Shown piece by piece: positions 7,309-32,163 of a stretch of DNA of 53,762 bases (positions are counted from its first letter, which is position 1; each line of letters opens with the position of its first letter). The DNA is taken from contig JAFGJG010000016.1 of assembly GCA_016929195.1 (NCBI GenBank), forward strand, positions 1-53,762, read 5' to 3'. Origin of the DNA: Thermoleophilaceae bacterium (GTDB taxonomy: Bacteria > Actinomycetota > Thermoleophilia > Solirubrobacterales > Thermoleophilaceae). A program made the translations under genes and the position numbers. The notes beneath the pieces are model-generated. The model saw only the letters and a program-made list of their open reading frames with translations. It did no database searches and was not told the DNA's origin.

Positions 7309-8581
<1,273 letters not shown>

Positions 8582-9608: not shown

Positions 9609-9951
9609 GCGCCCGGGTGCCGTGCCCGGACGTGCTCCTCGAGCGCCGCGGTCACCTGCCGGCGCTCGTCGGAGCCGGCCAGGCGAAGCCGCCCGAGCAG
9701 CTCCTTCTGGCCCTCGAGCGGGAGCCCGGCGATCTCCCAGCGGACCACCAGGCGCTCGAACAGGAACTCCACGCGCCGCTGCCAGCGGTCCTCGGCGCTC
9801 GCCGCGGGGCGGGCGTCGAGGTCGGCGAGCTTGCGCAGCGTGCCCTCGGAGAGCTCGTCGCGCAGCGTGAGCACGCCGTCGCCGGCCGGCACGTCCGTGG
9901 TGGAGGCGGCCGCGGCGGGCTCGCTGCGCCTGCGGCGCGAGCGGCGGCCCA

Positions 9952-9952
<1 letters not shown>
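9605..9952 (-). CDS. Conserved hypothetical protein coupled to clpB
   Basis: A 115-residue protein with a very basic N-terminus (MGRRSRRRRSE), a low-complexity Ala/Thr stretch, then an amphipathic helical C-terminal half. Its ATG shares a base with the clpB stop (TGATG), so it is translated from the clpB mRNA and presumably follows the same heat-shock control. I do not recognise the family. The gene is probably real because it is coupled and its helical half is not low complexity. Confidence 0.6.
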
Positions 9953-12492
<2,540 letters not shown>

Positions 12493-23612: not shown

Positions 23613-24277
23613 CCCCGGCCGAGCCGGCGCCGGCCCTCGGGACACATCCGCCGCAGCGGGCACTCTGCGCAGCGCGGCGAGCGCGCGTTGCAGGTGCGGC
23701 GGCCGTGGCGGATGAGCAGCACGTGCACCTCGTACGCGTCGCCCTCCGGCGTGAGCCGCAGGAGCTCGTCGTGGGCCTCCTCGAACGAGGCCTTGGGCCG
23801 GAACAGCCCGAGCCGGGTGCCGACCCTGTACACGTGGGTGTCGACCGGCACGTCGTGGCGGCCGAACGAGAAGAGCAGCACGCACGCCGCCGTCTTGCGG
23901 CCCACGCCGGGCAGCCCGACCAGGTAGTCGCGCGCGTCCTCGACCGGCGCCTCGGCCATCCACGAGAGGTCGTCGCCCGCAAGCGCGTCGAGGATCTCGA
24001 CGATCCGGCCCGCCTTCGTCGGCGCGAGGCCGCCCGGCCGGATCGCCTCCTCGACGTCCGCCACGGGGGCGCGCCGGACGTCCTCCCAGGACGGGAAGCG
24101 CTCGCGCAGCCGGTGGTAGGCGACGTCGCGGTTGCGGTCGTTCGTGTTCTGCGAGAGGACGGTGAGCACGAGCTCGTCGACCGGGGCGTGGTGAGCGTGC
24201 AGCACGGGGCGGCCGTACTCCCGGCGGAGGCGGTCGCGGATGGCGAGCAGCCGCCGACGGTCGGGACGCTTGTACAC
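23609..24277 (-). CDS. nth: Endonuclease III
   Basis: The 222-residue base-excision glycosylase/AP lyase acts on oxidised pyrimidines. The HhH motif GLPGVGRKTA carries the catalytic Lys, VPVDTHV the catalytic Asp, and the C-terminus has the [4Fe-4S] loop with C-X6-C-X2-C-X5-C spacing (CNARSPRCAECPLRRMC). QNTNDRN replaces the usual QxTD. The start is GTG 24277; TAGCCT lies exactly 7 nt upstream and there is no ribosome site, so the mRNA is probably leaderless. Confidence 0.95.
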   Translation of the reverse strand: MYKRPDRRRLLAIRDRLRREYGRPVLHAHHAPVDELVLTVLSQNTNDRNRDVAYHRLRERFPSWEDVRRAPVADVEEAIRPGGLAPTKAGRIVEILDALAGDDLSWMAEAPVEDARDYLVGLPGVGRKTAACVLLFSFGRHDVPVDTHVYRVGTRLGLFRPKASFEEAHDELLRLTPEGDAYEVHVLLIRHGRRTCNARSPRCAECPLRRMCPEGRRRLGRG

Positions 24278-24284
24278 GGCGGGA

Positions 24285-24290
24285 AGGCTA
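24285..24290 (-). promoter_or_regulatory. Putative -10 box, leaderless nth
   Basis: The minus strand reads TAGCCT-N7-GTG. Identical in sequence and spacing to the box before purC. Confidence 0.5.
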
Positions 24291-24311
24291 CGACTGGTAT
24301 CAAGCCGGGCC

Positions 24312-25091
24312 GTGGAGGTCAGCGAGCGGCGCGATCGGGTGGGTGACGTGGAGGTGAGCTGGCGCGTGGCCGGCGACGCGCCGGTGCTCTACCTGCACGG
24401 CGTGCCCACGGCGTCCTTCGACTGGATCCCGTTCCTCGAGCGGGGCGGCGGGATCGCGCCCGACCTGCCGGGCTTCGGCAACTCCGGGAAGCCTGCGGAG
24501 TTCGACTACTCGATGGAGGGCTACGCCGACTTCCTCGAGCGCTTCGTGGACCGGCTCGGGCTCGAGCGCATGTCGCTGGTCGTGCACGACTGGGGCGCGG
24601 TCGGCCTGGTGCTCGCGCAGCGACGCCCCGAGCTCGTCGAGCGCCTCGTGATCCTCGGGGCGGTGCCGCTCCTGCCCGGCTACCGCTGGCACCGCGTGGC
24701 GCGGCTCTGGCGCCGGCCGCTCGTGGGCGAGCTCGTGATGGGACTGACCACGCGCTGGGCGTTCCGGCGCGACCTCCCCGCGCCGATCGCCGACCAGGCC
24801 TGGGAGCACTTCGACCACGGCACCCAGCGCGCGATCCTGAAGCTCTACCGGTCGGCTTCCCCCGAGGCGCTGGCGGCCGCCGGCGCGGGCCTCGGGAGCC
24901 TGCGCTGCCCGGCGCTGCTGCTCTGGCCGGAGCGCGACCCGTACATCGACTCGAGGTTCGGGCAGGCATATGCCGACGCGCTCGGCGGCCCCGTGGAGCT
25001 CGAGCTCGTCGACGCCGCCCACTGGCCGTGGCTCGACAGGCCGGAGCTGGTCGAGCGCACGACCGCCTTCACGCGCGCGGGGCTCGGCTAG
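24312..25091 (+). CDS. Alpha/beta hydrolase, haloalkane-dehalogenase-like
   Basis: A 259-residue enzyme. From GTG 24312 the order is oxyanion region YLHGVPTASFDW, DLPGFGNSGKP, nucleophile elbow VVHDWGAVG (Asp93 as nucleophile, Trp94), acid loop LLLWPERDPYID and catalytic His in DAAHWPWLD. HDWG is the haloalkane-dehalogenase elbow rather than the Ser esterase type. The position holding the halide-binding Asn (HGNPT) in subfamily II is Val31, so dehalogenation is uncertain; epoxide hydrolysis is an alternative. It is divergent from nth. Confidence 0.82.
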   Translation: MEVSERRDRVGDVEVSWRVAGDAPVLYLHGVPTASFDWIPFLERGGGIAPDLPGFGNSGKPAEFDYSMEGYADFLERFVDRLGLERMSLVVHDWGAVGLVLAQRRPELVERLVILGAVPLLPGYRWHRVARLWRRPLVGELVMGLTTRWAFRRDLPAPIADQAWEHFDHGTQRAILKLYRSASPEALAAAGAGLGSLRCPALLLWPERDPYIDSRFGQAYADALGGPVELELVDAAHWPWLDRPELVERTTAFTRAGLG

Positions 25092-25103: not shown

Positions 25104-26819
25104 GTGCTCCGGGCCGCGCTCTCCGCTGTCACGGCGCCGCCTCGAGACCGCTCCGACGAGACGCCGCCGCGTACCCGCCGCTTCGCGCGCGGGGGCGCTC
25201 CGCCATCGGGGCTCGCCTGGTACCGGCGGGTCGACTGGTGGCGGCTCGCGCCGGTGCTGGTCGCCGCTCTGTTCGCGATCGCCTACCTGATCTGGCAGCC
25301 GCGGACGGTCGACCTCGCGGCTCACACGTTCCGCGCCGACCTGTTCGGCGAGGAGGGCTTCACGATCTGGAACGGGCAGTGGTACGGCGGTCACCACACC
25401 CCCGCCTACAGCGTCATCTCGCCGCCGATCGCGTGGCTGCTCAGCCCGCCGGTCGCGCTCGCGTTCACGGCAATCGCATGCGCCGCGCTGTTCGAGCCGC
25501 TCGCACGCGGCCACTTCGGGCCCGAGCGCTCGCGCTGGGGCGCGATCTTCTTCGGCGTCGCGAGCGCGACGCTCCTGTTCACGAGCCGGCTGCCGTTCGG
25601 GATCGGCGTCGCCCTCGGGCTCGCGTCCCTGCTGGCGCTCCAGCGCCGCCGCTACGGGCTCGCGATCCTGTTCGCGTTCCTCTGCCCGCTCGGCAGCCCG
25701 GTCGCCGGCCTGTTCCTCGCGATGGCGGGCACCGCGTTCGCCCTCTCGGAATGGGGCGAACGCAGGAAGCGCCTCGAGGGCATCGCGATCGCGGCGGCCG
25801 CCTTCATCCCGCCGGTGTTCCTCGCATGGGCGTTCCCGGAGGGCGGCTGGGCGCCGTTCCCCTTCACCGCGTACCTGCCGATCCCCCTCTTCTCACTCGT
25901 GTGCCTCTTCCTGTTCCCGCGCGAGGAGAAGGCACTGCGGTGGGGCGCCGCGCTCTACGGAGCGGGCGCCACGCTCGCGCTGTTCCTGGACACGCAGATG
26001 GGCGGCAACGCCGTGCGGCTCGGCGCGCTCTTCGGCGGGCCGGTGATGCTGTGCGCCGTCTGGGGGCAGCCGTGGACCAAGCGGGCCTGGGCGCTGCCGA
26101 TCCTGACGGCCGTGTTCACGGCGCTCGCGTTCTGGATGTGGTCGCCCGCCGTCCGCGACGTCATCAAGTACATCGAGGACCCGGCCGCGAAGTCCGACTA
26201 CTTCGAGCCGCTCCGTCAGTACCTCGCCACGCTCCCCGACCAGCGGCGCATCGAGATCCCGTTCACGCGCAGCCACTGGGAGGGGGCGGAGATCGCGATC
26301 CACACGCCGCTCGCCCGCGGGTGGCTGCGGCAGCTCGACACCGGCCGCAACCCGATCTTCTACGACGGCCCCGTCACGCGCCTGACGTACGCGAGCTGGC
26401 TCGCGGAGAACGCGGTGCGGTACGTGGCGCTGCCGAGCGCCAAGCCGGACAAGAGCTCGTACGCCGAGCGCGCGCTGATCGAGCGCGGGCTGCCCTACCT
26501 GCGACTGCGCTGGACCTCCAAGGACTGGCGCGTGTACGAGGTGCTCCTGCCCACGCCGTTCGTGATCCCGCAGAAGGACTCGAACATCGTGCTCGAGCAG
26601 CTCAGCTCGGACGAGCTCCTGCTCGACGTCAAGCGTCCCGGCGAGGCGATCGTCCGCGTGCGCTGGACGCCCTACTGGTTCGCGACCGGCGCCTGCGTCG
26701 AGCCCTACGGCAACTGGACCCGGGTGATCGCGAACCGTCAGGGATTCGTGCACATGAGTACTCGCTTCTCGCCCGAGCGGCTCTTCTCGCGCGGCCGCCG
26801 CTGCGACGACGGCAGCTAG
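25104..26819 (+). CDS. Polytopic membrane protein with extracytoplasmic C-terminal domain
   Basis: A 571-residue protein. A basic N-terminal tail (1-45), then about ten hydrophobic segments to residue 350, with the first luminal loop holding FRADLFGEEGFTIWNGQWYGGHHTPAYSVISPP, followed by a 210-residue soluble C-terminal part. This plan is that of GT-C type glycosyltransferases or their relatives, but I see no diagnostic signature. Possible partners are the ALG10-like gene at 22335 and the lipid genes that follow. Function unassigned. Confidence 0.7.
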   Translation: MLRAALSAVTAPPRDRSDETPPRTRRFARGGAPPSGLAWYRRVDWWRLAPVLVAALFAIAYLIWQPRTVDLAAHTFRADLFGEEGFTIWNGQWYGGHHTPAYSVISPPIAWLLSPPVALAFTAIACAALFEPLARGHFGPERSRWGAIFFGVASATLLFTSRLPFGIGVALGLASLLALQRRRYGLAILFAFLCPLGSPVAGLFLAMAGTAFALSEWGERRKRLEGIAIAAAAFIPPVFLAWAFPEGGWAPFPFTAYLPIPLFSLVCLFLFPREEKALRWGAALYGAGATLALFLDTQMGGNAVRLGALFGGPVMLCAVWGQPWTKRAWALPILTAVFTALAFWMWSPAVRDVIKYIEDPAAKSDYFEPLRQYLATLPDQRRIEIPFTRSHWEGAEIAIHTPLARGWLRQLDTGRNPIFYDGPVTRLTYASWLAENAVRYVALPSAKPDKSSYAERALIERGLPYLRLRWTSKDWRVYEVLLPTPFVIPQKDSNIVLEQLSSDELLLDVKRPGEAIVRVRWTPYWFATGACVEPYGNWTRVIANRQGFVHMSTRFSPERLFSRGRRCDDGS

Positions 26820-26833: not shown

Positions 26834-27637
26834 ATGCCCCGGTCGTATCCGCTGCTCCAGCAGCTGACCAGGGTCTGGCGTCTCACCGGTCGCTGGCTCC
26901 CGAACGGTTGGCTCGACGCGCTCCGCCAGCTCGCCCTGTTCGCGGGCGCCTATTACGCGTACCGGCTCGTGCGCGGCTTCGTCGACGGGCAGGCCGGCCT
27001 CGCGTTCGAGAACGCGCGCAACCTCGTGCACTTCGAGCGCGCCCTCGGCCTCTTCTTCGAGCCCGGCCTCCAGGCCTGGGCGCGCAGCCAGGACTGGATC
27101 CTCACGGGCGCGAACTGGATGTACGTCAACTCGCACTTCGTGGTCACGACCACCTTCCTGATCTGGCTCTACATCGCGCGCAACCAGGCCTACTACTTCG
27201 TGCGCAACATGTTCATGGTCGCCATGACGCTCGCGCTCGTGGGCTACCTGGTCTACCCGACCGCTCCGCCGCGCTTCCTGCCCGAGTGGGGCTTCACGGA
27301 CTCGGTCGCGTCCTTCGTCGGCGAGTCGGCCGACCGCAGCGCGGACGTGCTCTACAACCCGTTCGCTGCCGTCCCGAGCATGCACGTGGCATTCGCACTG
27401 ATGATCGCGGTACCGGCGTTCTTCCTCGTGCGCAACCGCGTGCTCAGGGCGCTCTGGCTGGTCTATCCGCTGGTCGTGACCTTCGTCGTGGTCGTTACCG
27501 CCAACCACTTCTGGATGGACGCCCTGCTCGGGGCGCTCGTGGCGGCCGTTTCCGCCATCGCGGCGTCCGAGGCGTTCGCCCGCGCCCGGCCCGAGGCGTG
27601 GGCCTGGCGCACGCGCCGCGTCAAGGTCACCGCGTGA
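26834..27637 (+). CDS. AUR1/PAP2-type membrane phosphatase or inositolphosphotransferase
   Basis: A 267-residue membrane protein with about six helices. YPTAPPRFLP, NPFAAVPSMHVAFAL and ANHFWMDALLG are the conserved motifs of the AUR1/Ipt1-like PAP2 family; His in PSMH and His-x3-Asp in HFWMD form the catalytic site. The next gene, overlapping by GTGA, encodes a PIP-synthase-like enzyme, and inositol-1-phosphate synthase follows. I infer a role in inositol lipid metabolism, possibly dephosphorylation of phosphatidylinositol phosphate or transfer of phosphoinositol. Confidence 0.82.
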   Translation: MPRSYPLLQQLTRVWRLTGRWLPNGWLDALRQLALFAGAYYAYRLVRGFVDGQAGLAFENARNLVHFERALGLFFEPGLQAWARSQDWILTGANWMYVNSHFVVTTTFLIWLYIARNQAYYFVRNMFMVAMTLALVGYLVYPTAPPRFLPEWGFTDSVASFVGESADRSADVLYNPFAAVPSMHVAFALMIAVPAFFLVRNRVLRALWLVYPLVVTFVVVVTANHFWMDALLGALVAAVSAIAASEAFARARPEAWAWRTRRVKVTA

Positions 27638-28293
27638 GTTCCGAAGAGCTCGGCACCCGGCCCGCGCGGAGCCGTCCGCGGCGGGGCGGGCGAGACGGGG
27701 CGGGCGAGTTCCGCGCGCTCGCGCGCAACCGCCTGATCGAGTCGCGGCTGACGCCGAACGCGATCTCGCTCACCGGCTTCGTGCTGAACCTCGTCGCGGC
27801 GGTGCTGATCCTCGAGGAGCACTTCGTGCTCGCCGCCGTCGCGTTCATCGTCGGCTCGGTCATGGACACGCTCGACGGCCGCTACTCGCGGATGTCCGGC
27901 AAGGGCACGCAGTTCGGCGCGTTCCTCGACTCGACGCTCGACCGGGTCGAGGAGGGAATAGTCCTCGCCGCCGTCGCCACGTACTACGCCAAGCAGGGGG
28001 AGCAGACCGTCGTCGGGGCCACCGTCCTCGCCGTCGTGGGCTCCTACATGGTCAGCTACACACGTGCGCGCGCCGAGGCGCTCGGCGTGGAGTGCAAGGT
28101 CGGGATCGCCTCGAGGGCGGTGAGAGTCGTCATACTCTCTGCCGGACTGGTGTTCGCTGCCGGAGAGATCGTGGACGACCTCGATCTCCTGGAGCCGGCC
28201 ATCTACGGGGTCGCCGCGCTGACCATCTTTACGACGCTTCAGCGCGTGCTTCACGTTCGCCGGCAGCTCGTGCGGGCATCAGACGAGATGTAA
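27634..28293 (+). CDS. CDP-alcohol phosphatidyltransferase, probable phosphatidylinositol-phosphate synthase
   Basis: A 219-residue membrane enzyme. The metal/CDP motif is D78-x2-D81-G82-x3-R86-x8-G95-x3-D99-x3-D103; all four Asp are present, but Ser85 replaces the usual Ala of DGxx[13 protein letters not shown] closely matches actinobacterial PgsA1, which joins CDP-diacylglycerol and inositol-1-phosphate. The GTG at 27634 overlaps the PAP2 stop. The adjacent inositol-1-phosphate synthase supports the substrate. Related archaetidylinositol-phosphate synthases cannot be excluded. Confidence 0.85.
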
Positions 28294-28325: not shown

Positions 28326-28353
28326 GGCCCCGGGAACCGGGGCCGTTTTCTTG
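28326..28353 (+). terminator. Intrinsic terminator after the PAP2/PIP synthase pair
   Basis: GGCCCCGG-GAA-CCGGGGCC forms an 8-bp all-GC stem, followed by GTTTTCTT. It separates the phosphatidyltransferase gene from ino1, so ino1 has its own promoter or is controlled by read-through. Confidence 0.8.
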
Positions 28354-28372: not shown

Positions 28373-29542
28373 GTGACCGAATCGATTTCTACGAACGGTG
28401 GTGCGCGCTACCAGACCGAGAAGGTGCGCGTGGCCATCGTCGGCGTGGGCAACTGCGCATCGTCCTTCGTCCAGGGCGTGGAGTACTACAAGGACGCCGA
28501 TCCGTCCCGGGCGGTACCCGGGCTCATGCACGTGGACCTGGGTGGGTACCACGTACGTGACATCGAGTTCACCGCCGCGTTCGACATCGACGCGGACAAG
28601 GTCGGAAAGGACCTGTCCGAGGCGATCTGGGCGGGCCAGAACAACACCCTGAAGTTCGCGGACGTGCCACACCTCGACGTGCCGGTCTACCGCGGGATGA
28701 CGCACGACGGCCTCGGCAAGTACCTCAAGGAGCGCATCACCAAGGCTCCGGGCGAGACCGACGACATCGTCCAGATCCTCAAGGAGACCAGAACGGACGT
28801 GGTGGTCTCCTACCTGCCGGTCGGCTCCGAGCTGGCCACCAAGTGGTACGTGGAGCAGGTGCTCGAGGCGGGCTGCGGTTTCGTGAACTGCATCCCGGTC
28901 TTCATCGCCTCCGAGAACTACTGGGCGAACCGCTTCCGCAAGGCCGGGCTCCCGATCGTCGGTGACGACATCAAGTCCCAGGTCGGCGCGACGATCCTCC
29001 ACCGGACGCTCGCGAGCCTGTTCCAGGACCGCGGCGTGCGCCTCGCGCGGACGTCGCAGCTGAACGTCGGCGGCAACATGGACTTCTACAACATGCTCGA
29101 GCGCGAGCGGCTGGAGTCCAAGAAGATCTCGAAGACCCAGGCTGTCACGTCGCTCCTGGACGAGAAGCTGCCCGCGGACGACGTGTACATCGGCCCCTCG
29201 GACTACGTGCCGTGGCTGACCGACCGCAAGTGGGCGCACATCCGGCTCGAGGGCGAGGCCTTCGGGGACGTGCCGCTCAGCTTCGAGGCGAAGCTCGAGG
29301 TCTGGGACTCGCCGAACTCAGCGGGCATCGTCACCGACGCCGTGCGCTGCTGCAAGCTGGCGCTCAACCGCGGCATCGGCGGCCCGCTCGAGGAGCCGAG
29401 CTCCTACCTCATGAAGTCACCGCCGGTGCAGGTGCCGGACTCGGTGGCGCGTGAGAACACCGAGCGGTTCATCGCCGAGCATGCCGGCGCTCCCAAGCTG
29501 CCCGGCGGCGAGGCGCGCATCAAGGTCGAGCCGGCCTCGTAG
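28373..29542 (+). CDS. ino1: Inositol-1-phosphate synthase
   Basis: The 389-residue enzyme converts glucose-6-phosphate to inositol-1-phosphate with NAD. GTG 28373 has AGGAGG 6 nt upstream. [18 protein letters not shown] is the NAD-binding loop, and [37 protein letters not shown] and [17 protein letters not shown] are actinobacterial-type signature stretches; the Lys residues in these belong to the active site. It supplies inositol phosphate for the PIP synthase just upstream. Confidence 0.96.
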
Positions 29543-29604: not shown

Positions 29605-29632
29605 CACCCTGCTCGGCCGGGTGCGCACCGAT
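29605..29632 (+). repeat. 28-bp hairpin element, copy 1
   Basis: This 28-bp sequence recurs at 32170-32197 with one mismatch (T for G at the sixth base); the last 22 bp are identical. It contains a CACCC.GC-TCG-GCCGGGTG hairpin (one mismatch here) overlapping the perfect palindrome GGTGCGCACC. A TATCCT hexamer follows 9 nt later, so it occupies the -35/operator region of the downstream gene. Confidence 0.75.
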
Positions 29633-29641
29633 CGCCTCTCC

Positions 29642-29647
29642 TATCCT
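29642..29647 (+). promoter_or_regulatory. Putative -10 box, leaderless fusion gene
   Basis: TATCCT-N6-GTG (29654). It sits 9 nt after the 28-bp element, and no Shine-Dalgarno precedes the GTG. This spacing supports 29654 as the start over the in-frame GTG inside the repeat at 29621. Confidence 0.5.
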
Positions 29648-29653
29648 GCAACC

Positions 29654-31510
29654 GTGCCCTCCGACCGGCTTCGGATCGCCCAGGTCACGCCGTATCCCTG
29701 GGAGCTCCACCACGAGGTCAACCGCTTCGTCGAGCGCCTCTCCGACGAGCTCTGCTCGCGCGGGCACAGCGTCGTCGTCGTGGCACCGTCGGACTCGCGC
29801 GAGCTGGTGCGCGAGGGGCGCGGGAGGATCGACCGCCTGGGGGAGGACCCCGACGCGATCTTCGGCGAGCGCGGCGACGCGTCGCTCGTCGCCGTCGGGC
29901 AGAGCCTGCCGTTCCGGCGCGGGGGCTCGGTCGCTCTCCCGCTCGACGTGTCACGCACGCTCGAGGACCTGCTCGACAACGCCGAGCTCGACTTCGTCCA
30001 CGTGCACGAGCCGTTCGCGCCCAGCGCGGCGTCGGCGGCGCTGCGCCACTCGCGCGCTCTCAACGTCGGCACCTTCCACGGCGCCACGGAGCGGCTGCTG
30101 TCGACGCAGGTGGCGCGCCGCGTCGTCGAGCTGCTCTTCGGGCGGCTCGACGGCCGTACCGTCAGCTTCAGCGCGACTCGCGAGCTGCTCGACCGCTACT
30201 TCCCCGGCGACTACCGGCTGATCCTCCCGGGCGCCGACCTCCTCCACCGAACCGACGCCGACGGCGGGACTCCCGAGATCGTCTTCTCGGACGAGGAGGA
30301 GCGCGGCGCCCTGCGGCTCTTCCTCCGCGCGCTGCGCCGGCTGCCGCTGGACGTGGACTGGCGAGCGACGATCTGGCTGCGCGACCCGGGCAGCGCGCCC
30401 GCGGTGTCGCTGCCGCGCCGGCTGCGCGACCGCGTGACGCTGGCCGGGCCCGCGGACGGGTCCGAGGCGCAGTACCTCGCGCGAGCCCGGGTCGCGGTGG
30501 CGGCCTCCGCGGGCACGGCCCCGGCGCCGCAGCTTGTGCTCCGCGCGCTCGCCGGGGGCGCGGTCCCCGTGGCGGCGAGGCTGCCCCAGTACGAGGAGGT
30601 CCTTCGCGACGGCGAGCTGGGGCTTCTGTTCGAGCCGCGCGACGCGATCACCCTCGCCGGTCAGCTCGAGCGGCTGCTCTCCGAACCGGTGCTGCTCGGC
30701 GAGCTCTCCGGGCGCATCGAGCGCGCCCACCCCGAGCTCGAGTGGTCGCGCACGGCCGACCGCTTCGAGGAGCTGTACGCCGAGATCGCCGCGCGCCGGC
30801 ACGGGACGAACGGCAACCCCGAGCTGCGCAAGCGGCTCGCGGAGCGGCCGTTCGTGGACGTGGACCTGCACATGCACACCGATCATTCGCCCGACTGCGC
30901 CACGCCCGTGGACACGCTCCTCGAGACGGCCAAGCGGGTCGGCCTCGGCGCGATCGCGATCACCGACCACAACGAGGTCTCGGGCGCGCTCGAGGCGCGC
31001 GAGCGCGCGGACGGGATCAAGGTGATCGTGGCCGAGGAGGTCAAGACGGCCGACCAGGGAGAGGTGATCGGCCTCTTCATCGAGGAGAAGATCCCGCGCG
31101 GCATGACCCTTGCGGAGACGATCGCCGAGATCCGCCGGCAGGGCGGGCTCGTGTACGTGCCGCACCCCTTCGACCGGATGCACGCCGTGCCGGACTACGA
31201 GCACCTGCTCGGGGTGGTGGAGGAGATCGACGCGATCGAGGTCTTCAACCCGCGCGTGGCGTTCTCCGCCTTCAACGAGGAGGCCGCGCGGTTCGCGGCC
31301 AAGTACCGGATCGTCGCCGGCGCCGGATCGGACAGCCACGTGGCGCAGGGCCTCGGCACCGTGAAGATCCGCATGCGCGACTTCGACGGCCCCGAGGAGT
31401 TTCTCGAGTCGCTCCGGGACGCGGACATCGTCCGGAAGAAGCAGTCGCTCCTCTACGTCCAGGCCCTCAAGTTCATCCAGACGAAGGGGCCGAAGGGGCG
31501 CAGGAGATGA
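29654..31510 (+). CDS. PimA-like glycosyltransferase domain fused to PHP-domain phosphoesterase
   Basis: A 618-residue fusion. Residues 1-385 form a GT-B fold like PimA/GT4 (RIAQVTPYPWELHHEVNRF, DFVHVHEPFAPS, VGTFHGATERL). The GT4 EX7E glutamates are absent: Ala289 and Arg297 stand where Glu is expected (APAPQLVLRALAGG). Residues 400-618 form a PHP domain with an intact metal site: H406-M-H408, ITDHNE, YVPHPFD and GSDSH. So the PHP part is probably catalytic and the GT part probably a pseudo-enzyme or sugar-nucleotide sensor. It overlaps the next gene by ATGA. Confidence 0.85.
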   Translation: MPSDRLRIAQVTPYPWELHHEVNRFVERLSDELCSRGHSVVVVAPSDSRELVREGRGRIDRLGEDPDAIFGERGDASLVAVGQSLPFRRGGSVALPLDVSRTLEDLLDNAELDFVHVHEPFAPSAASAALRHSRALNVGTFHGATERLLSTQVARRVVELLFGRLDGRTVSFSATRELLDRYFPGDYRLILPGADLLHRTDADGGTPEIVFSDEEERGALRLFLRALRRLPLDVDWRATIWLRDPGSAPAVSLPRRLRDRVTLAGPADGSEAQYLARARVAVAASAGTAPAPQLVLRALAGGAVPVAARLPQYEEVLRDGELGLLFEPRDAITLAGQLERLLSEPVLLGELSGRIERAHPELEWSRTADRFEELYAEIAARRHGTNGNPELRKRLAERPFVDVDLHMHTDHSPDCATPVDTLLETAKRVGLGAIAITDHNEVSGALEARERADGIKVIVAEEVKTADQGEVIGLFIEEKIPRGMTLAETIAEIRRQGGLVYVPHPFDRMHAVPDYEHLLGVVEEIDAIEVFNPRVAFSAFNEEAARFAAKYRIVAGAGSDSHVAQGLGTVKIRMRDFDGPEEFLESLRDADIVRKKQSLLYVQALKFIQTKGPKGRRR

Positions 31511-32163
31511 TGCACGCAAAAGGAGGGGGGGCCGGTCCGTCAAAAGCCATGGTCCAGGTGCCCGCTACCGACGACGAGATCAAGGAGAAGTACCTCGAGC
31601 GGGCGATCCGCGAGCTGAACCAGCTCACGAGGACGATCCAGAGCTGCGACCACTGCCCGCGCGGCAATCTGATGCCGGTGCTCGGCTCGGGGCACCCGCA
31701 GGCGGACATCATGCTCCTGAAGTTCGCGCCGGTCCCCTCCGAGGTCGAGGAGGGCGTGGCGTTCTACGGGCGCGCCGGCAGCGCGCTGATGAAGAGCTTC
31801 AAGCGGCTCGGCATCGATCCGCTGACCGTCTACGGGACGGTGTTCGTGAAGTGCCCGGTCGGCGACACCGACCTGTCCGCGCCGGAGTGCCGCGCGCGCG
31901 TGCTCGATGAGATCGCGATCGTCCAGCCGCGGATCGTCGTCGTGATGGGCGAGGAGGCGCTCGAGGAGCTGAACTCGCTGGGAGTCCCGCTGGGTGCGCA
32001 GATCGCGCCCATGGAGGGCGAGATCCAGCGCCTCACGCCGGCATGCGACGTGCTCTACGTGCCGGACATCGACGCGTCGCTCGACGACGAGCGCGTGAAG
32101 CGCGAGTTCTGGGCCGCGTTCCGGGCGCTCGGCACCTGGTACGAGGACTTTCCTCCGTATTAG
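31507..32163 (+). CDS. Divergent uracil-DNA glycosylase-superfamily protein
   Basis: A 218-residue protein. Four Cys in the layout of Fe-S family 4/5 enzymes (CDHC near residue 39-42, KCPVGD, PEC) and FYGRAGSALMKSFKRLGI resemble UDG family 4. The water-activating motif GEAPG reads KFAPVP, and the C-terminal HPS loop reads YVPDIDA, so standard uracil excision is doubtful. ATG 31507 overlaps the fusion gene stop; ATG 31510 and 31549 are alternatives. AAAAGGAGG at 31518-31526 lies inside the gene with no start at proper distance. Confidence 0.72.
   Translation: MMHAKGGGAGPSKAMVQVPATDDEIKEKYLERAIRELNQLTRTIQSCDHCPRGNLMPVLGSGHPQADIMLLKFAPVPSEVEEGVAFYGRAGSALMKSFKRLGIDPLTVYGTVFVKCPVGDTDLSAPECRARVLDEIAIVQPRIVVVMGEEALEELNSLGVPLGAQIAPMEGEIQRLTPACDVLYVPDIDASLDDERVKREFWAAFRALGTWYEDFPPY

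What the first reader, a model, noticed from the sequence alone, without database searches (positions are those of the whole stretch)
26834..28293. Candidate phosphatidylinositol-phosphate phosphatase or inositolphosphotransferase next to PIP synthase
Actinobacterial PI is made from CDP-DAG and inositol-1-phosphate through PIP, which then needs a phosphatase that has been hard to assign. Here an AUR1-type PAP2 protein overlaps the PIP-synthase-like gene (GTGA), and ino1 follows. The PAP2 active site is intact.
Basis: partly seen in the sequence, partly recalled or inferred. Interest (0 to 1): 0.6.

Follow-up and report, generated by a model that had tools for sequence, protein, structure and literature searches.

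The report
AUR1-like enzyme in inositol-lipid gene cluster
In a soil bacterium related to Solirubrobacter, a membrane enzyme resembling the fungal inositol-sphingolipid synthase AUR1 sits in a conserved gene cluster that makes inositol lipids, but the still-missing phosphatase of that pathway is more likely to be a different protein encoded three genes further along.

Summary
A 267-aa PAP2_3 protein (26834-27637) overlaps a PIP-synthase-like gene (27634-28293) by GTGA, and ino1 (28373-29542) follows. The PIP synthase keeps every inositol-phosphate-binding residue reported for M. tuberculosis PgsA1. PAP2 lies directly upstream of PIP synthase in 88 of 150 listed genomes of the class, in 7 of 12 families, so the pairing is real and conserved. 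The phosphatase interpretation is only partly supported. PAP2 looks AUR1-type: its best solved-structure matches are fungal inositol phosphorylceramide synthases, which are transferases. Its catalytic His/His/Asp are invariant, but the active site is predicted outside the membrane (42/42 homologues), while the M. tuberculosis PIP synthase takes inositol phosphate from the cytoplasm. Whole families have PIP synthase and no such PAP2. It is found in all 200 class genomes, and in this order the sugar-donor residues are lost while the PHP site is kept. I favour PAP2 as an outward-facing phosphoinositol transferase (0.45), with the PHP domain the better PIP-phosphatase candidate (about 0.4). No biochemistry is shown.

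The parts
26834..27637 (+). AUR1-type PAP2_3 membrane protein, 267 aa
   Evidence: PF14378 3.6e-41; AF2 model pLDDT 87, best structural match AUR1 IPC synthase Z 18.1 over 224 aa
27257..27274 (+). PTAPPR motif (residues 142-147), the position of PAP2 motif C1
   Evidence: P142, A144, P145, P146 invariant, R147 invariant in A3; aligned to P-APPW of AUR1
27374..27385 (+). PSMH (residues 181-184), motif C2 with catalytic His184
   Evidence: invariant in 42 homologues
27503..27520 (+). NHFWMD (residues 224-229), motif C3 with His225 and Asp229
   Evidence: N224, H225, D229 invariant; aligned to HHYFVD of AUR1
27634..27637 (+). GTGA stop/start overlap of PAP2 and PIP synthase
   Evidence: sequence
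27634..28293 (+). phosphatidylinositol-phosphate-synthase-like CDP-alcohol phosphotransferase, 219 aa
   Evidence: PF01066; best solved relatives M. tuberculosis PgsA1 4e-18; ino-P residues R104, S141, R144, R146, R161, R164, R204 conserved
28326..28344 (+). terminator-like hairpin followed by TTTT between PIP synthase and ino1
   Evidence: in only 2 of 105 relatives, so not a conserved feature
28373..29542 (+). myo-inositol-1-phosphate synthase (ino1)
   Evidence: PF01658 1.6e-35; TIGR03450 570 bits, cut-off 638
29621..31510 (+). PimA-like GT4 domain fused to a PHP phosphoesterase, 629 aa; second phosphatase candidate
   Evidence: GT profile best match PimA 3e-65; match in 200/200 class genomes
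30815..31507 (+). PHP metal-dependent phosphoesterase domain
   Evidence: PF02811; metal motifs intact; AF2 model matches PHP structures Z 18-20
25104..26819 (+). 571-aa membrane protein of unknown family, conserved upstream of PAP2 in the own order
   Evidence: only a weak PF10131 match, E 0.02
24240..25091 (+). alpha/beta hydrolase conserved at the upstream end of the cluster in the own order
   Evidence: PF00561, synteny

Best explanation
The window holds an inositol-lipid biosynthesis cluster of a Thermoleophilaceae bacterium. INO1 makes inositol phosphate; the CDP-alcohol enzyme joins it to CDP-diacylglycerol to give PIP (inferred from conserved residues). PIP is then dephosphorylated on the cytoplasmic side, most plausibly by the PHP domain of the PimA-like/PHP fusion protein (inferred). 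PI that reaches the outer leaflet is used by the AUR1-type PAP2 protein as a phosphoinositol donor: His225 would attack the PI phosphate to form a phospho-enzyme, releasing diacylglycerol, and the phosphoinositol is passed to a lipid or glycan acceptor that is not yet known. A ceramide-like lipid is possible in this order, which carries an SPT-like gene. Shown here: gene order, conservation, fold, active-site residues, predicted topology. Inferred: the reactions, the acceptor, and the PHP role.
For: A profile of 22 PAP2 homologues matched only AUR1 chains in the whole PDB at E <= 0.1. The model's best structural matches are AUR1 (9vj4 Z 18.1 over 224 residues, 9ivc Z 17.8 over 235), ahead of LpxE (15.1 over 164), the B. 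subtilis PGP phosphatase (12.4) and E. coli PgpB (9.3-10.9). Catalytic H184, H225 and D229 are invariant. Active-site loops are net negative and the opposite loops net positive in 42 of 42 sequences. The PIP synthase pocket residues are conserved. Pairing: 88 of 150 genomes, 7 families; linked copies group together in the tree except the two of family f6. In Bacteroides an AUR1-like gene, PIP synthase and MIPS sit in one cluster with a separate phosphatase, and the AUR1-like gene is the phosphoinositol transferase (PMC9246714). Relatives make PI: Solirubrobacter PI and PIM (PMC10722151), Conexibacter woesei PI as main polar lipid (PMC3035278).
Against: The fold match shows no activity, and PAP2_3 proteins in general match the same models: another PAP2_3 of this genome scores 34.5 bits on NF052609, the window protein 31.9, cut-off 480. 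No acceptor is identified; the SPT-like gene is in 60/60 genomes of the order but has no close counterpart in the other PAP2-bearing families f6, f7, f10 and f11. In f4 the PAP2 gene is missing from an otherwise intact cluster and the SPT-like gene is kept. The PHP domain has lost its metal site in the three f5 genomes examined.
Confidence: 0.45

Rival explanations
1. The PAP2 protein is itself the PIP phosphatase: it hydrolyses the inositol phosphate monoester of PIP to give PI.
For: Conserved position directly before PIP synthase, overlapping it in the window; active site intact; no PgpA-type gene, the family of the Bacteroides PIP phosphatase, in this genome (PMC9246714). PAP2 enzymes do remove phosphate from lipid head groups, e.g. 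PgpB on PGP (known families).
Against: Active site predicted outside whereas PIP is made inside; closest solved relatives are transferases; PIP synthase occurs without linked PAP2 in f4, f5, f8, f9 and in most of the phylum (75 of 296 genomes have this PAP2 kind, 280 of 296 a PIP-synthase-profile match).
Confidence: 0.2
2. The PHP domain of the fusion protein at 29621-31510 is a phosphatase of something else (a soluble inositol or sugar phosphate, or a nucleotide) and neither candidate in the cluster is the PIP phosphatase.
For: Characterised PHP enzymes act on soluble substrates or nucleic acids (nearest structures include RNase AM and PsfC). In f5 genomes the PHP motifs are lost although the gene stays beside PIP synthase.
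Against: Fusion to a PimA-like domain, strict conservation of the metal motifs outside f5 (67 of 70 full-length copies), constant neighbourhood with PIP synthase and ino1.
Confidence: 0.35
3. The PAP2 protein is a general lipid-phosphate phosphatase (undecaprenyl pyrophosphate, phosphatidic acid or PGP) that happens to be co-transcribed with inositol-lipid genes.
For: Extracytoplasmic active site is typical of such enzymes; the upstream membrane protein is conserved beside it in the own order and a polyprenyl-linked function for that pair is not excluded.
Against: The genome has another PAP2 protein that matches PgpB and undecaprenyl-diphosphatase models; the window protein does not. The linkage to PIP synthase holds in families where the upstream membrane protein was not found (f6, f7, f10, f11).
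Confidence: 0.25
4. The GT-PHP fusion is a mycothiol enzyme pair (MshA-like transferase plus the missing MshA2 phosphatase).
For: ino1 in actinobacteria also feeds mycothiol; the phosphatase after MshA is unassigned (general knowledge).
Against: No MshC above cut-off in this genome (best 286 bits against 485); the GT domain matches PimA (3e-65) far better than MshA structures (about 1e-22 to 1e-28).
Confidence: 0.03

Closest known systems
Bacteroides thetaiotaomicron inositol-lipid cluster BT_1522-BT_1526 (PMC9246714)
   Same: One cluster holds an AUR1-like PAP2 protein, a PIP synthase and a myo-inositol phosphate synthase, plus a phosphatase candidate.
   Different: There the phosphatase BT_1525 is PgpA-family and AUR1-like BT_1522 makes phosphoinositol dihydroceramide. 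Here no PgpA was found in the genome, the extra phosphatase candidate is a PHP domain fused to a PimA-like domain, and the window PAP2 scores 31.9 bits against a 480-bit cut-off on the phosphoinositol dihydroceramide synthase model.
Fungal AUR1 inositol phosphorylceramide synthase
   Same: Fold over almost the whole protein (Z about 18), P-APP motif, PSxH, HxxxD.
   Different: About 16% identity; no Kei1 partner sought; acceptor unknown.
M. tuberculosis PgsA1 (Rv2612c) PIP synthase
   Same: CDP-alcohol motif and all reported inositol-phosphate residues, with K135 as Arg.
   Different: Neighbour genes differ (ino1 and GT-PHP here). Scores are below the NCBIfam cut-off: 128.7 against 170 for PIP synthase, 139.7 against 180 for archaetidylinositol phosphate synthase.
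PimA, phosphatidylinositol mannosyltransferase
   Same: GT domain of the downstream fusion, profile E 3e-65.
   Different: In the window's order the positions of PimA R196, K202, E274 and E282 are mostly replaced, all four in the window protein, and a PHP domain is attached.

Membership tests
AUR1-like PAP2_3 | PF14378 domain above gathering score | tested here: met
   141.5 bits, cut-off 27
AUR1-like PAP2_3 | catalytic His (PSxH), His and Asp (HxxxD) | tested here: met
   H184, H225, D229 invariant, aligned to AUR1
AUR1-like PAP2_3 | AUR1 fold over the full length | tested here: met
   9vj4 Z 18.1, rmsd 3.6, 224 aligned; 9ivc Z 17.8, rmsd 5.1, 235 aligned
AUR1-like PAP2_3 | active site on the non-cytoplasmic side | tested here: met
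   prediction only: positive-inside count, 42 of 42 sequences
Phosphoinositol dihydroceramide synthase (NF052609, BT_1522 type) | equivalog score above cut-off | tested here: not met
   31.9 bits against 480; hence not filed there
Phosphoinositol dihydroceramide synthase (NF052609, BT_1522 type) | transfer of phosphoinositol to ceramide | not testable with these tools
   needs enzyme assay or lipidomics
PIP synthase | CDP-alcohol phosphotransferase motif D(x2)DG(x2)(A/S)R(x8)G(x3)D(x3)D | tested here: met
   D78 D81 G82 R86 G95 D99 D103 invariant in 25 sequences
PIP synthase | inositol-phosphate residues of PgsA1 (R94, S132, K135, R137, R152, R155, R195) | tested here: met
   R104, S141, R144 (Lys to Arg), R146, R161, R164, R204
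PIP synthase | NCBIfam NF045883 cut-off | tested here: not met
   128.7 against 170 bits; so PIP-synthase-like by residues, not a curated equivalog
PIP phosphatase of Bacteroides type (BT_1525, PgpA family) | PF04608 gene in the genome | tested here: not met
   no match in the own genome, controls ring
PIP phosphatase (functional) | PIP accumulates when the gene is removed | not testable with these tools
   experiment needed for both PAP2 and PHP candidates
PHP phosphoesterase | metal-ligand motifs HxH, DH, E, PHP, SDxH | tested here: met
   present in the window and in 67 of 70 full-length copies; lost in 3 copies, all of family f5
PHP phosphoesterase | PHP fold | tested here: met
   3e38 Z 20.5, TM0559 Z 19.2, PsfC Z 18.1
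PimA | GDP-mannose site and EX7E residues (R196, K202, E274, E282; recalled from the PimA literature) | tested here: not met
   S, G, A, R in the window protein; not filed as an active PimA
Mycothiol pathway | MshC above cut-off in the genome | tested here: not met
   286 bits against 485

The most novel reading that the evidence does not exclude
The phosphatase that turns PIP into PI, listed as unidentified for mycobacteria (PMC6506517), is in this deep actinobacterial class a PHP phosphoesterase fused to a PimA-derived domain that in this order has lost its sugar-donor residues and may serve to hold the enzyme at the PI head group. The AUR1-type PAP2 protein beside PIP synthase then makes a new outer-leaflet phosphoinositol lipid from the PI, possibly a sphingolipid.
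Probability: 0.3. Interest if true: 0.75.

Novelty: new variant of a known kind. Interest (0 to 1): 0.5.

Why it matters
The step from PIP to PI has no assigned enzyme in mycobacteria (PMC6506517), where PI-derived lipids are needed for the cell wall. A conserved cluster that carries PIP synthase, inositol phosphate synthase and two separate phosphate-handling candidates makes the question testable in a few assays. It also places an AUR1-type enzyme in an inositol-lipid context in a bacterial phylum other than Bacteroidetes, which would mean an undescribed inositol lipid in soil bacteria.

Tried and rejected
Sequence search of the single PAP2 protein against PDB found nothing; only the profile reached AUR1. 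The weak NF052609 match was first taken as evidence for IPC synthase, but a control PAP2_3 of the same genome scores the same, so it only marks the PAP2_3 subfamily. Linkage of PAP2 or of PHP relatives to PIP synthase outside the class: none seen among the listed coordinates. The ceramide acceptor as a general explanation: rejected for the class, because the SPT-like gene is confined to the own order apart from weaker matches. Mycothiol reading: no MshC. Operon continuity: a terminator-like hairpin lies before ino1 in the window but in only 2 of 105 relatives, and the region folds no better than shuffles (z -0.87), so I draw nothing from it. A published structure paper for IPC synthase was sought and not found in the library. 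First ORF pickers mis-called membrane genes in this high-GC genome; marker profiles were used instead.

Full report
What is there. The PAP2 gene (26834-27637) and the CDP-alcohol phosphotransferase gene (27634-28293) overlap by GTGA, and ino1 (28373-29542) follows. Pfam gives PAP2_3, CDP-OH_P_transf and Inos-1-P_synth. The named relatives are Solirubrobacterales and Thermoleophilaceae, and the window's own assembly is a 3.46-Mb draft.

PIP synthase. The best solved relative of the CDP-alcohol enzyme is M. tuberculosis PgsA1. The residues that line its inositol-phosphate pocket (R94, S132, K135, R137, R152, R155, R195; PMC6506517) correspond to R104, S141, R144, R146, R161, R164 and R204. R104, S141, R144, R161, R164 and R204 are invariant in 25 class sequences. 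NCBIfam scores lie between PIP synthase and archaetidylinositol phosphate synthase and below both cut-offs. With ino1 next door, PIP synthase is the safest reading. Relatives in the order make PI (PMC3035278) and PI mannosides (PMC10722151).

Conservation of the pairing. In 200 genomes of the class, PIP synthase matched in 197 and PAP2 in 153. Among the 150 genomes whose PIP synthase was listed with coordinates, PAP2 is the immediate upstream gene on the same strand in 88 (families f1 7, f2 13, f3 22, f6 3, f7 38, f10 1, f11 4) and within 12 kb in 8 more. In f4, f5, f8 and f9 no PAP2 is adjacent; none is listed in the f4, f8 and f9 genomes. In f4 and in one f3 genome (L083) the upstream membrane gene abuts PIP synthase directly, so PAP2 appears cleanly lost. 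The 80 closest PAP2 relatives in named genomes all lie in this cluster as far as their contigs reach. In a tree of 62 PAP2 proteins the linked copies of f1, f2, f3, f7, f10 and f11 fall in one supported group that also holds some unlinked paralogues, while the two linked f6 copies lie apart. The order PIP synthase, ino1, GT-PHP is kept more widely than PAP2: GT-PHP lies in 32 of 40 fetched neighbourhoods, and most of the rest are cut by contig ends or have it just beyond the stretch fetched. Outside the class I saw no PAP2 next to PIP synthase among the listed coordinates of 296 genomes of the phylum.

What kind of PAP2. A profile of 22 homologues searched against all PDB sequences finds only AUR1, E 1e-4. 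The AlphaFold2 model (pLDDT 87) matches AUR1 over almost the whole protein (Z 18.1/224 residues and 17.8/235), then LpxE 15.1/164, the B. subtilis PGP phosphatase 12.4/168 and E. coli PgpB 9.3-10.9. The Foldseek E-values themselves are modest, about 2e-3. Catalytic His184, His225 and Asp229 are invariant. The loops that carry the motifs are acidic and the other side is basic in all 42 homologues, so the active site should face outward, as in AUR1 (lumenal) and PgpB (both from general knowledge). The PIP synthase pocket opens to the cytoplasm (PMC6506517).

The other phosphatase candidate. The GT half of the fusion matches PimA far above any other structure (3e-65). In the window's order the positions of PimA R196, K202, E274 and E282 are mostly replaced; in the window they are S, G, A and R, while an f6 member keeps K, E and E (the roles of these residues are from my knowledge of PimA). 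The PHP half is the better conserved half in 57 of 58 comparisons (mean 71% against 48% identity). It keeps its metal motifs in 67 of 70 full-length copies, the three exceptions all being f5, and its model matches PHP phosphoesterases at Z 18-20, among them PsfC. The fusion query matches in all 200 class genomes, in the weakest cases perhaps only through other GT4 proteins. No PgpA, the family of the Bacteroides PIP phosphatase, was found in the genome. A cytoplasmic phosphoesterase fused to a PI-enzyme-derived domain, beside PIP synthase, is therefore my leading candidate for PIP phosphatase at about 0.4. The degenerate f5 copies are the main unexplained point, and neither candidate accounts for two f5 genomes (G019, G049), where PAP2 is missing and the PHP match is weak and does not reach the HxH motif.

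Acceptor. The genome has a gene closest to serine palmitoyltransferase (best structures SPT 2.5e-91; NCBIfam SPT models lead but below cut-off). It is present in 60 of 60 genomes of the order at 63% identity or more, with nothing close in f6, f7, f10 and f11, and in the genomes viewed it lies divergently beside a GNAT-like gene. A ceramide acceptor is thus possible in this order and is not the general answer for the class.

Comparison. The nearest described system is the Bacteroides cluster, where an AUR1-like protein makes phosphoinositol dihydroceramide, BT_1523 is PIP synthase, BT_1525 (PgpA family) is the probable PIP phosphatase and BT_1526 is MIPS (PMC9246714). Here the phosphatase slot would be filled by a PHP domain.

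Verdict. Observation confirmed; interpretation partly supported; a new variant of a known kind of cluster. All functions remain inferred.

Noticed in passing
29621-31510 (+): PimA-like glycosyltransferase fused to an intact PHP phosphoesterase, near PIP synthase and ino1 across the class; the GT donor-site residues are lost in this order.
   Followed up: yes
L076 6457-7050, L078 3012-3614, L079 7740-8327 (family f5): In these genomes the same fusion protein has lost the PHP metal motifs and most GT donor residues but keeps its place beside PIP synthase; its role there is unexplained.
   Followed up: partly
25104-26819 (+): A 571-aa membrane protein with invariant D70, W93, H97 and others, conserved next to PAP2 in the own order; no Pfam or NCBIfam family at E below 1e-3, only a weak PF10131 hint (E 0.02).
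   Followed up: partly
L185 1450-2682 (own genome, contig C155): Serine-palmitoyltransferase-like gene in every genome of the order searched (60 of 60), divergent from a GNAT-like gene in the neighbours viewed: possible undescribed sphingolipid synthesis in Solirubrobacterales.
   Followed up: partly
L092 (G142) 7404-8459 and 9828-10595; G167 contig C54: Two PAP2 copies in one cluster, separated in L092 by the membrane protein gene.
   Followed up: partly
L065 3456-9008 (family f4): Cluster from which PAP2 is cleanly missing between the membrane protein gene and PIP synthase.
   Followed up: yes
28326-28344 (+): Strong terminator-like hairpin plus TTTT between PIP synthase and ino1, in only 2 of 105 relatives.
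   Followed up: yes
about 31507-32163 (+): Uracil-DNA-glycosylase-like gene (named by eye, not tested) that stays next to GT-PHP across the class.
   Followed up: no
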